Shown: positions 1 to 18,300 of the stretch, in pieces | Layout of the letters: each line of letters starts with the position of its first letter | Position numbering within the stretch: the stretch's first letter is position 1 | Source of the DNA: an uncultured Bacteroidales bacterium | GTDB taxonomy: Bacteria; Bacteroidota; Bacteroidia; Bacteroidales; UBA932 | Length of the DNA stretch: 32,654 nucleotides | Reading direction: 5' to 3' | NCBI GenBank assembly: GCA_905235775.1 | Contig: CAJOMY010000003.1 | Span: forward strand, 1 to 32,654 | The notes under the pieces: model-generated | Seen by the model: only the letters and a program-made list of their open reading frames with translations | The model's database searches: none | What the model was told of the DNA's origin: nothing | Position numbers and translations under genes: made by a program

Positions 1-1
1 G

Positions 2-1093
2 GACAACGGAAGAAGTGATTTGCTCTATCTCGTGGCCACTCTCGGCTATGACGAAGAGACTGGCAAGTGGAACGACTGCGGATATGACTGGGGGCGTAGT
101 GTCAACTTCAGCGTTGAAGCCGGAGAGACGTATTATGTTTCGCTTTGCACGTGGAATTATGTCGTAAACGGGTTCGCCCTGTCTTGGCAGCGTCTGCTGC
201 CGCCCGCCAACGACGACTTCGCCGACGCCGCGGCGCTGGCAGGCATGTCCGGCGAAGCGACGGGCACCAACGTCGGGGCGACGACGGACGACGGCGAATG
301 TTCATACGCCCGCGGCAGCGCCTCCTGGGACGATTGGCGGAATGTCGGCGAGGTGTGGTGGAAGTGGACGGCGCCGCAGAGCGGAACCGTTGCTTTCGAC
401 ACGCACGGCTCCGACTACGACACCACTGTCGCCGTCTATACGGGTACGGCGCTCGAAAATCTCGAACTGGTTGCAGATGACGACGACTACTACGACGACT
501 ACACGAGCCGCGTCGAGTTCGGGGCCGTGTCCGGAACGACCTACTACATCGCCGTAGGCGGATATGAAATCGGCAACATACGGCTGAGCTGGAGCATGGA
601 AGGCGACGAGGGGGTCGGCGTGACGGTCGTCGTCGACGAGTGCAAGGCGATTGTTGAGCGGCAGGGCAACGCCTACCTCGTTTCGGCGGTGACCGCGACG
701 GATCCGCTGCTGGCGGGCGACATCTCCGTCACGGCCAGTGTGGACGGCGAAACGGTCGACGTCACGGACGGGTTCGAGATCGTCATCGCGCCGAAAGGCC
801 TGACGGCGACCGTCAGCCTCAGGAAGCCGGAAATCCTCGCCGCCGCGTCCGGTGAAAAGGTCGAGGACGATCCGACCGGCCTTCTGGTGTATGTCCAGGA
901 AGGCGGCGAGAGACATCCCGCTCTGCCGGTCAAAACCGTCCGCGGACTCTACTACCAGGCGAGCTGGGGCGACGACCTCGAGCACATGACGCCCGGCGAA
1001 AAGGTGCGGGCGACGGGCGGCACGCTCTGCCTCGGCGTCATCAGGCAGACGGGCGGAAGAGGCTTCTACAAGGTTTCCGTCAGCGAGAGATAG
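2..1093 (+). CDS. Secreted repeat protein with PPC-like beta-sandwich domains, 5'-partial
   Basis: The reading frame is open from the first bases of the window, so the true start lies upstream and only the C-terminal ~364 residues are visible. The visible part holds the end of one beta-sandwich repeat, then the linker PPANDDFADA and a second repeat with a VGEVWWKWTAP core, a DYDTTVAVYTG strand and an Asp-rich turn (ADDDDYYDDY) that could bind calcium. A beta-rich tail of about 160 residues follows. PPANDDFADA-type repeats resembling bacterial pre-peptidase C-terminal domains are frequent in large secreted proteins of Kiritimatiellota, Lentisphaerota and other PVC bacteria; that is recalled knowledge, not a search. 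Function is unknown, probably adhesion or extracellular binding. This gene appears to belong to a different organism from the genes after ~1.28 kb. Confidence 0.7.
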   Translation, partial: DNGRSDLLYLVATLGYDEETGKWNDCGYDWGRSVNFSVEAGETYYVSLCTWNYVVNGFALSWQRLLPPANDDFADAAALAGMSGEATGTNVGATTDDGECSYARGSASWDDWRNVGEVWWKWTAPQSGTVAFDTHGSDYDTTVAVYTGTALENLELVADDDDYYDDYTSRVEFGAVSGTTYYIAVGGYEIGNIRLSWSMEGDEGVGVTVVVDECKAIVERQGNAYLVSAVTATDPLLAGDISVTASVDGETVDVTDGFEIVIAPKGLTATVSLRKPEILAAASGEKVEDDPTGLLVYVQEGGERHPALPVKTVRGLYYQASWGDDLEHMTPGEKVRATGGTLCLGVIRQTGGRGFYKVSVSER

Positions 1094-1116
1094 TCGCCGA
1101 AACTTCCGCCGCCGCC

Positions 1117-1146
1117 TTGACTTTTCAGGGCCAAAAACGATATAAT
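1117..1146 (+). promoter_or_regulatory. Canonical sigma70-type promoter
   Basis: TTGACT (1117-1122) and TATAAT (1141-1146) are separated by 18 nt. The TATAAT lies 27 nt before the ATG at 1174. This is a textbook housekeeping promoter and differs from the TAnnTTTG elements used by genes further right, which supports a foreign origin for this segment. Confidence 0.65.
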
Positions 1147-1162
1147 TACCATATTATATCGT

Positions 1163-1167
1163 GGAGG
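1163..1167 (+). promoter_or_regulatory. Strong Shine-Dalgarno site fixing the start at 1174
   Basis: GGAGG sits 6 nt before ATG 1174. It decides the start of the short reading frame; an upstream TTG at 1117 lies inside the -35 box. Genes in the Bacteroidota part of the window lack such a site. Confidence 0.7.
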
Positions 1168-1173
1168 AAAGAC

Positions 1174-1347
1174 ATGGCTGAAGATTTGCAGAGTCTCTTG
1201 GAGAAGATCAACCGCGAGGGGGTCGAAAAGGCCCGCGCCGCAGCAGACGAAATCGTCGCCGCCGCCAAGGCCGAGTTCACCCTGAAGTTCGGCCACGCCC
1301 CGAAGATCTACGACGTCGTCATCTCCGACGGCGCACGAAAGCTGTAG
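1174..1347 (+). CDS. Chimeric 57-aa frame: V-type ATPase subunit E N-terminus joined to galactokinase C-terminus
   Basis: Residues 1-34 begin MAEDLQSLLEKINREGVEKA and continue with an Ala/Lys-rich helix. This matches the start of V/A-type ATP synthase subunit E, the peripheral-stalk protein, as found in PVC bacteria, which is normally around 200 residues. The expected long helix stops abruptly. Residues 35-57 instead read as the extreme C-terminus of a galactokinase, ending IYDVVISDGARKL. The two halves have no functional relation. Promoter and ribosome-site style also change across the join. I judge this an assembly artefact that happens to be in frame. A real fusion is possible but unlikely. 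Confidence 0.75.
   Translation: MAEDLQSLLEKINREGVEKARAAADEIVAAAKAEFTLKFGHAPKIYDVVISDGARKL
1262..1285. other. Probable assembly misjoin between two genomes
   Basis: Protein similarity switches here from V-ATPase subunit E to galactokinase. To the left are a PVC-like secreted protein, a sigma70 promoter and a Shine-Dalgarno. To the right are Bacteroidota genes with TAnnTTTG promoters. The exact breakpoint cannot be fixed by eye because GCC/GAG-type codons suit both sides. Confidence 0.7.
1276..1347 (+). CDS. galK: Galactokinase, C-terminal fragment only
   Basis: The last ~23 codons (FTLKFGHAP then IYDVVISDGARKL) match the conserved end of GHMP-family galactokinases; the human enzyme ends with a comparable FYLSQAADGAKVL. 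Galactokinase phosphorylates galactose in the Leloir pathway. All catalytic regions are missing, being replaced by the foreign segment. The real genome probably carries a complete galK immediately upstream of ychF. Confidence 0.65.
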   Translation, partial: FTLKFGHAPKIYDVVISDGARKL

Positions 1348-1386: not shown

Positions 1387-2490
<1,104 letters not shown>

Positions 2491-3171: not shown

Positions 3172-3474
3172 TCATTCCGGGCTCGACCCGGAACCCCGAT
3201 CCTTCCGGTCGATCCGCTTCCAGATCCAGTACATCAGCGCCCCCCAGGCGAGAAAGAGCAGCCCATACACCCAGAAAGGCAGCTGCGCCTGATAGACATC
3301 CCAGTCAAGCGCCTTCTCGTACTCCGGGATGTCGGCATAATAATAGGCCCCGGCACCGAAATCCAGCTCGGGATTGAGGCCGATGCGGCGGACCATGATA
3401 TAGACGGCAGCCGCCAGAATGGCTCCCCCCACGACGAGGAGGGCCACCCTGGCGGCTGTCTTCTTTCCGGCCAT
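3172..3474 (-). CDS. Small two-helix membrane protein downstream of the YeiH-type transporter
   Basis: The 100-aa protein has two hydrophobic helices (about residues 9-28 and 66-86). The soluble loop between them is rich in Tyr and acidic residues (FGAGAYYYADIPEYEKALDW). A charged tail follows. The ATG at 3474, giving MAGKKTAARV, is preferred: it lies 5 nt after the transporter stop, whereas the in-frame upstream start at 3528 would put a basic non-helical extension inside that gene. It is almost certainly cotranscribed with the transporter and may be an accessory subunit. The last codons and stop lie in a repeated hairpin (3175-3193). No family is recognised. Confidence 0.7.
   Translation of the reverse strand: MAGKKTAARVALLVVGGAILAAAVYIMVRRIGLNPELDFGAGAYYYADIPEYEKALDWDVYQAQLPFWVYGLLFLAWGALMYWIWKRIDRKDRGSGSSPE
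3175..3193. terminator. Repeat-type hairpin between convergent genes
   Basis: TTCCGGG and CCCGGAA pair around a 5-nt loop, preceded by GTCA. It separates CpXC (+) from the small membrane-protein gene (-) and could stop transcription in both directions. A degenerate relative (GTCATTCCC...GGGGAAT) follows the SGNH gene near 28088, so this looks like a dispersed intergenic repeat. Confidence 0.45.
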
Positions 3475-15359: not shown

Positions 15360-18300
15360 TTATTCGTATAATTTCTTGAGATCCGCATCGTCGGGATGAT
15401 TCTGCAGACGCGCCACGAACTCGCGCGGGGTCATGCCGAAATACTCTTTGAAAGAGCTGGAGAAGTAGGAATGGGAGGAGAATCCCACCCGGTAGGCCAC
15501 TTCGGACACATTGACCTGGCTGTCCGCCAGCAGATGCGCCGCCTGTTTCATGCGGCAGGTCCTGATGAGCACGCCGGGGGATTCCTGGCCGAAGGCTTTG
15601 AGCTTGCGGTTCAGGTGTACGCGGCTGATGCCGACGTCCTCGCAGAGCGCGGCCACGCCAAAGTCCGGGTCTTCGAGGTGCTTCTGGATGCTCTCCACGA
15701 TGCGCCGGAGGAGCCGCTCGTCGGCCGAACCCATCTGGATGCCCGAGTAGTCGTAGTTCATCGCCACGCCGTAGCGGTCCTTGACCGCCTCACGGGCGGA
15801 AATGGCCTGGGCGACGCTGCTGAGCAGCAGCTCGACGGAGATCGGTTTGGACAGGAATTTGTCCGCGCCGCTGTCGCTGGCCGCCTGCTCCTCCTGTTCG
15901 TCGTTCTGGCCGGTCAGGATGATGACCGGGATGTGGCGCGTGGCGTCGTTCGCCCGGATGCGGGCGCAAAACTCGCTGCCGCTCTCGCCCGGCATCACGA
16001 GGTCGGTGATCACGATGTCCGGCAGCGTTCCGGTCACGACGGGCCAGGCCGCCGCCGCATCCGCGCAGGCGGTGACGTTGTACGGGCCGCGCAGCAGGGT
16101 CTTGAGGTATTCGCGGGTGTCCTCGTCGTCATCCACCACGACGACGTTCTTCTTGGCCCGGACGGTGCGCTCGGCGGGGCTTTCTGCCGGCGCGTGGGTC
16201 TGGTCCTCGTGCTCGTCGGCGGAGTTTTTGGTGTAAAGGTCCTTGTGGTGCGAGGTGTAGGAGAGCTCTTCGGTGGTGAGGTGCTCCTTGCCGGCGGGCA
16301 CAAGGACGCGGAACACCACGCCGTCGTCCTCATTCTCGGCGAAGATGCGGCCGTGGTGCAGCTCGACGAGCATCTTGGTCAGGTTCAGGCCCACGCCGGA
16401 GCCGGAATTCGCGTCGTGCGGGTTCACCTGCACGAATCGGTCGAAGATGCGGCTGATCCAGGCCTCCTCGATGCGGCTGCCGGAGTTGAAGATGCGCACC
16501 TGCACGAAATCCCGGATATCGGGGCGCAGTTCGTCCCGGTTGGGGATGAGACCGGACACGTTCACGCGGATGCGGCCGCCTTCCGGCGTATGCTTGAAGG
16601 CGTTCGAGAGAATGTTGTAGACGATCTTGTCGAAGTTGCCCTGGTCGATCCAGAGGAGTTCCTCGGCATGCGTGGACGTCAGCGAGAAGTCGATCCGTTT
16701 GCTCTGCGCGAGTTTGTCGAAGGACTTCATGATGTCCTGGATGAAATAGATGATGTCCGTCTGCCGGAAGTGCAGCTGCATCTGTCCGGCATCGATCTTG
16801 CGCAGGTCCATGAACTGGTTGACGATGCGGTTGATGCGCAGACAGTTGCGGTACATCAGGTTGTAGGTGTCCTTGCGGGCGGCGTCCAGCTCGGCTTCGC
16901 GCATGGCGCCCAGCGGCGCCATCACGAGGTTGAGCGGGGTGCGGATCTCGTGGGTGAGATTGGTGAACAGGCCGAGACGCAATTCCATCATCTCCGCTTC
17001 TTTCTTTTCCTCGGTGCGCCGCCGCTGCTGCCGTATCATCCGGAACAACAGCGCTATCAGGCCGGTCAGCAGGATCAGGTAGCAGGCGTAAGCCGGGCCG
17101 GTGCCGTACCAGGGGGCTGCCACGCGAAGTTCCACGCTGTGTTCGGAGCAGTCCTCAGGCGCACCGGCGAAAAAGGCTCTCACTTCGAAACGGTAACGTC
17201 CCGGCGGCACATTGGTATACGTGGCTGCGCGCAGGAGCGCGGGTGCGGTCTTCCAGTCGGTGTCGAATCCCGCCAGGCGGTAGGCATAGACGATGCGCTG
17301 GGGGTTGGTGTACTCCGGGACGGAGAATTCGAGCGAGAACAGATTGGCGCCCCGCGGAATTTGGATCCGGGAGGCCTCGGAGATATGCTTGTCGATCAGG
17401 TTGTCCTTGCCTGCCGCCGGGTCGAAGGAGACGTCCTGGCCGAGCACCGTCAGCCGCGCCAGGGAGACTTGCGGGATGCGGTGTCCGCTGCCGTCCACGA
17501 GCATCGGGAAGAAATGGGTGACGCCGCCGGTCCCGCCGAAATAGAGCCGGCCGGATGCGGCCTTGCAGGCGGCGCCGGAGCGGAATTCATTGCCCTGCAG
17601 GCCGTCGTAGGAGCGGAAGCTGTCGATCTTGCCGCTGCGGGGCGACAGCCGGGACAGCCCGCCCAGCGAGGAGGCCCAGACATCGCCGGTGGCGGTGACG
17701 AGGATATCGCGGATCACATTGCTCGCCAGGCCGTCCTGATCCGTGTAGAGCCGGACTGCGCGCGTGTTCTCGTCCACGCGGAGCAGACCGTCTTCCGTGC
17801 CGAACCACATGGTTCCTTCCGGGCCGCTGCCGATGCTGTAGATGCGCTGCGGGGTGTTGCCGTCGGCCGGAATGGCATATGGCACGACGCGTCTGGCCGC
17901 CGGGTCGTAGCACCAGGGACCGTTGTAGGTGCCCACCCAGAGCATGCCGTTGGCATCCAGGTGCAAAGAGCTGACCCAACGGTATTGATTCTCGACCTGC
18001 CGGTCGACAATCCGCTTCGATCCGGCGTTGATGACGACAAGTCCCTCCCCGTAGGTGCCCGCATAGACGAGGTCGCGCACGGGGTCGTAAACCAGGGTGC
18101 GGATGCGTTCGGTGCCGATTTCGCCGTTGACGGCGAAATGAGTGATCGAGCCGTTCCGGTCCAGGCAGAACAGGCCGTCCAGGTAAGTCCCGATCCAGAG
18201 CGTGCCATGGTTGTCTCCCGTGATGGCCATGATCGAATTGTTGGTCAGGGCGGAATTGTCCCGTGTATATGTCCGCTCCCGGGGGGTTCCCGCCCTTCCC

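What the first reader, a model, noticed from the sequence alone, without database searches (positions are those of the whole stretch)
1174..1347. In-frame chimera of V-ATPase subunit E and galactokinase marks a cross-phylum misjoin
The short frame starts as a V-type ATPase subunit E and ends as a galactokinase. Left of it are a PVC-like secreted protein, a TTGACT-N18-TATAAT promoter and a strong Shine-Dalgarno; right of it everything is Bacteroidota in style. The simplest explanation is a metagenome assembly error. Anyone using this window for gene transfer or fusion claims would be misled.
Basis: partly seen in the sequence, partly recalled or inferred. Interest (0 to 1): 0.7.

Follow-up and report, generated by a model that had tools for sequence, protein, structure and literature searches.

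The report
Assembly misjoin splits a galactokinase gene
The short 'fusion gene' is not real: the first ~1.25 kb of this contig come from a different gut bacterium (Kiritimatiellae) and were wrongly joined, across about 20 shared letters, to the broken end of a Bacteroidales galactokinase gene whose other part ends another contig of the same draft genome.

Summary
The 57-codon frame at 1174-1347 exists. Its first ~33 codons, with promoter and Shine-Dalgarno, are the start of a Kiritimatiellae V-ATPase subunit E gene: 81-82% DNA identity over 1114-1271 in several Kiritimatiellae or uncultured rumen MAGs. Its end (from 1253/1255) is the 3' end of the galactokinase gene of the window's own Bacteroidales genus (94% identity to a congener). 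In three congeners an intact galK runs straight into ychF. In the window's own genome the rest of galK (1,016 nt) stops dead at the end of another contig, C40. C40's 1,016 nt + 43 missing nt + the window's 93 nt make exactly 1,152 nt, the length of an intact congener gene. The foreign 1-1250 has no substantial match in 399 other sampled congeners and sits at the contig's very start. Both parents encode a VAAAKAE-like stretch at the switch point (1255 to about 1275), which accounts for the join and the preserved frame. From 1276 to about 6 kb, the stretch compared here, the window is Bacteroidales. Not a biological feature. Reads were not available, so a real insertion into galK is very unlikely but not formally excluded.

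The parts
1..1254 (+). foreign end of the contig, from a Kiritimatiellae bacterium: 3' part of a secreted protein gene (2-1093) plus promoter, Shine-Dalgarno and start of its V-ATPase subunit E gene
   Evidence: 81-82% DNA identity over 1114-1271 to Kiritimatiellae/RUG MAGs; secreted-protein homologs in the same group; no substantial match in 399 other congeners
1117..1146 (+). conserved sigma-70-type promoter TTGACT-N18-TATAAT of the Kiritimatiellae V-ATPase E gene
   Evidence: the same -35/-10 lies at the same place upstream of V-ATPase E in L045, L055, L056, L061, L066 and others
1174..1347 (+). chimeric open reading frame (57 codons), artefact of the join
1255..1275 (+). switch zone GTCGCCGCCGCCAAGGCCGAG: homologous to both parents, encodes VAAAKAE
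   Evidence: Kiritimatiellae homology runs to 1271, galK homology starts at 1253/1255; that an identical ~17-21-mer existed in both true parents is inferred
1255..1347 (+). last 93 nt of the Bacteroidales galK; the preceding 1,016 nt end contig C40 of the same genome
   Evidence: 1,016 + 43 (missing) + 93 = 1,152 nt = length of intact galK in congener G224
1387..2490 (+). ychF GTPase gene, directly downstream of galK also in congeners G104, G224 and G332

Best explanation
The 57-codon 'fusion' is a metagenome assembly artefact. The assembler (or scaffolder) passed from a Kiritimatiellae V-ATPase subunit E gene into a Bacteroidales galactokinase gene through a short stretch identical, or nearly so, in both (1255 to about 1275, both encoding a VAAAKAE-like motif in the same frame). 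The true upstream part of galK was left as the end of contig C40. Shown: the ancestry of both halves, the split galK, the intact gene and gene order in congeners, and the absence of substantial matches to the left part in the sampled genus. Inferred: that a shared k-mer in the graph caused the join, and that no real DNA molecule carries it.
For: C40 ends at its last base inside galK, and its 1,016 nt + 43 nt + the window's 93 nt = 1,152 nt, exactly the intact galK of congener G224. Congeners G104, G224 and G332 carry galK-ychF uninterrupted across the point. The left flank, promoter included, is 81-82% identical to Kiritimatiellae DNA up to 1271 and has only chance-length matches (about 23-38 nt) in 4 of 399 other congeners. 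The genome's candidate V-ATPase E gene lies on contig C87, beside a V-ATPase catalytic subunit gene, and is a different sequence. The foreign DNA occupies one extreme contig end of a 199-contig draft genome. Chimeric contigs at stretches of sequence shared between species are a documented failure of de Bruijn graph metagenome assembly (PMC8171044; PMC7881036).
Against: No reads, depth or assembler record could be inspected. The exact Kiritimatiellae donor was not found (best about 82%), so the exact identity of the overlap in the donor is not shown. Tetranucleotide composition is only weakly deviant.
Confidence: 0.96

Rival explanations
1. Real horizontal transfer: a fragment of Kiritimatiellae DNA inserted into galK of this Bacteroidales strain, breaking the gene and deleting about 43 nt, with the contig break at C40 marking the other edge of the insert.
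For: The same galK is split at this point in the genome, which an insertion would also give.
Against: The junction lies within a stretch that both parents share in the same reading frame; the foreign DNA ends at a contig end with no mobile-element or integrase gene visible in 1-1254; it is absent from the sampled congeners; a gut or rumen metagenome would plausibly contain both lineages (inference).
Confidence: 0.03
2. A functional fusion or regulatory peptide made of V-ATPase E and galactokinase ends.
For: The frame is open and has a promoter and a Shine-Dalgarno.
Against: Promoter and Shine-Dalgarno belong to the Kiritimatiellae gene; no genome among those searched shows the fusion; the piece holds no complete domain.
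Confidence: 0.01

Closest known systems
Interspecies chimeric contig of short-read metagenome assembly (chimeric node of a de Bruijn graph)
   Same: Two unrelated lineages joined at a short stretch homologous to both, with the displaced true flank left as an end of another contig
   Different: The join happens to stay in frame and close to a promoter, so it looks like a small fusion gene; the assembler and its k are unknown
V-type ATPase subunit E (PF01991) of Kiritimatiellae
   Same: N-terminal ~33 residues, promoter and Shine-Dalgarno
   Different: Most of the 199-position family domain is missing
Galactokinase (GHMP kinase) of the window's Bacteroidales genus
   Same: Last 30 residues, 93 nt
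   Different: The first ~339 residues are on contig C40 and about 14 lie in the missing 43 nt

Membership tests
Metagenome assembly misjoin | The two sides come from different organisms | tested here: met
   left Kiritimatiellae; right Bacteroidales congeners
Metagenome assembly misjoin | Sequence shared by both parents at the switch point | tested here: met
   homology to both over 1255-1271; exact identity in the true donor not testable, donor not found
Metagenome assembly misjoin | The displaced true partner sequence exists elsewhere in the same assembly as a contig end | tested here: met
   galK 5' part ends contig C40 at its last base
Metagenome assembly misjoin | Depth change or missing paired reads across the join | not testable with these tools
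   no reads available
V-ATPase subunit E | Complete PF01991 domain | tested here: not met
   no PF01991 match to the 57-aa frame
Galactokinase | Complete GHMP kinase domains | tested here: not met
   only the C-terminal ~30 aa are present

The most novel reading that the evidence does not exclude
A real insertion of Kiritimatiellae DNA into galK of this one Bacteroidales strain, i.e. a cross-phylum transfer that broke the galactokinase gene.
Probability: 0.03. Interest if true: 0.35.

Novelty: not a real feature. Interest (0 to 1): 0.07.

Why it matters
It matters only as quality control. Bases 1-1254 should be trimmed from this contig, and no claim of gene transfer, fusion or a V-ATPase E/secreted protein in this Bacteroidales genome should rest on them. 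GalK should be scored as present but split over contigs C40 and C3, not as lost. The case also shows that GC and tetranucleotide checks can miss such joins, whereas looking for the missing gene half at another contig end finds them.

Tried and rejected
GC and tetranucleotide contrast: not decisive, 1-1250 ranks among the 6 most deviant of 49 stretches. Pfam on the chimera and its halves: nothing above cut-off. Suspicion of a second misjoin between galK and ychF, because in many congeners the galK end lies elsewhere relative to ychF: rejected after finding the same galK-ychF order in G104, G224 and G332. Search for the left protein in viral contigs and genome contigs by peptide patterns: no relative. 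Plasmid collection: no match. The exact 21-mer of the switch zone was not found in any other held locus within one mismatch, so its presence in both true parents is inferred. C40 end and window share no exact 15-mer, so the two galK pieces do not overlap; 43 nt are missing. The V-ATPase piece alone was too short for the search for related loci.

Full report
Observation. The frame ATG 1174 - TAG 1347 is present and reads MAEDLQSLLEKINREGVEKARAAADEIVAAAKAEFTLKFGHAPKIYDVVISDGARKL. The promoter TTGACT-N18-TATAAT begins at 1117 and a GGAGG Shine-Dalgarno precedes the ATG. Pfam sees nothing above cut-off in the 57 residues or their halves, so relatives had to decide.

Right half. In 53 of the 61 genomes searched (the window's own included; 36 others are of its genus), parts of 900-2500 match. 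The region from about 1253 matches the 3' end of a galactokinase gene, and nothing before about 1246 matches in any other of them. In congener G008 the complete galactokinase ends VAAAKAEFTLKFGHAPKIYDVVISDGARKL, identical in protein to the window's end. In a 400-genome sample of the genus, G104 (87%), G224 (87%) and G332 (80%) match the window from 1255 through the start of ychF without a break. In all three the galactokinase is intact and is followed directly by ychF. So the galK-ychF junction at 1347-1387 is genuine for this lineage.

The missing piece. In the window's own assembly (199 contigs, 92% complete, 2.6% contamination) the galactokinase N-terminal ~339 residues lie on contig C40 and stop at its end, base 16077 of 16077. 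Against G104 the end of C40 aligns up to position 3303 of L079, and the window resumes at 3345-3347. The sum 1,016 + 43 + 93 = 1,152 nt equals the intact gene of G224 to the base. One gene has been split over two contigs, and the foreign DNA sits where 43 nt of it should be.

Left half. A degenerate DNA pattern for EKIxREGVEKA found 28 loci. Most are annotated Kiritimatiellae or Verrucomicrobia MAGs, many from ruminant guts, or unnamed RUG bins; the Bacteroidales hits are clearly more distant. Window 1114-1271, which includes the promoter, the Shine-Dalgarno and the start of subunit E, is 81-82% identical to L045, L055 and L056, and 1109-1271 is 81% identical to L066. The -35 and -10 boxes are conserved in place. 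Seventy-three of 114 genomes of the same family as L055's match the left 1271 bases somewhere, including homologs of the secreted protein. By contrast, apart from the window's genome itself, only 4 of 400 sampled genomes of the genus show any match to 1-1250, each about 23-38 nt long, i.e. chance. The window's genome has a candidate V-ATPase E gene of its own, a different sequence (weak Pfam match, below the curated cut-off), next to a V-ATPase catalytic subunit gene on C87.

Join. Kiritimatiellae homology runs to 1271 and galK homology begins at 1253-1255, so the switch lies in GTCGCCGCCGCCAAGGCCGAG (1255-1275). There both proteins carry a similar helical A/K-rich motif in the same frame, which also explains why the chimera stays open. 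A shared k-mer of about 17-21 nt is the likely cause; this is inferred, since the exact donor was not found and the assembler is unknown. Chimeric nodes arising from sequence stretches common to two species are described in PMC8171044, and the tendency of low to intermediate coverage species to enter chimeric contigs in PMC7881036.

Alternatives. A true insertion of foreign DNA into galK would also split the gene. It would have to hit a point where donor and target are homologous in frame, remove 43 nt, and leave the insert at a contig end, without any mobile-element gene in the 1.25 kb visible. I give it about 3%. Composition does not settle the matter. Reads would.

Verdict. The boundary is now placed at 1255-1275. 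The left 1,254 bases should be assigned to Kiritimatiellae and trimmed. The compared stretch from 1276 to about 6 kb stands as Bacteroidales, matching congeners.

Noticed in passing
G000 contig C40:15062-16077 (L036:5063-6078): 5' 1,016 nt of the window organism's galK, cut off by the contig end; the gene should be scored as present.
   Followed up: yes
window 1387-2490 and loci L022, L026-L031, L079-L081: The position of galK relative to ychF differs among congeners (directly upstream, downstream on the same strand, or divergent about 2 kb away), so this gene pair is rearranged often within the genus.
   Followed up: partly
G000 contig C87:5000-7656 (L037): The genome has its own V-ATPase operon (E-like, a further subunit, catalytic A-like), whose E-like protein scores below the Pfam cut-off (19.8 bits against 24.2).
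   Followed up: no
window 924-1093; L089, L090, L094, L098, L100, L103, L105, L107: The C-terminal ~50-residue segment of the foreign secreted protein recurs in several copies per Kiritimatiellae genome (e.g. three in G431); it may be a shared C-terminal domain or sorting segment.
   Followed up: partly
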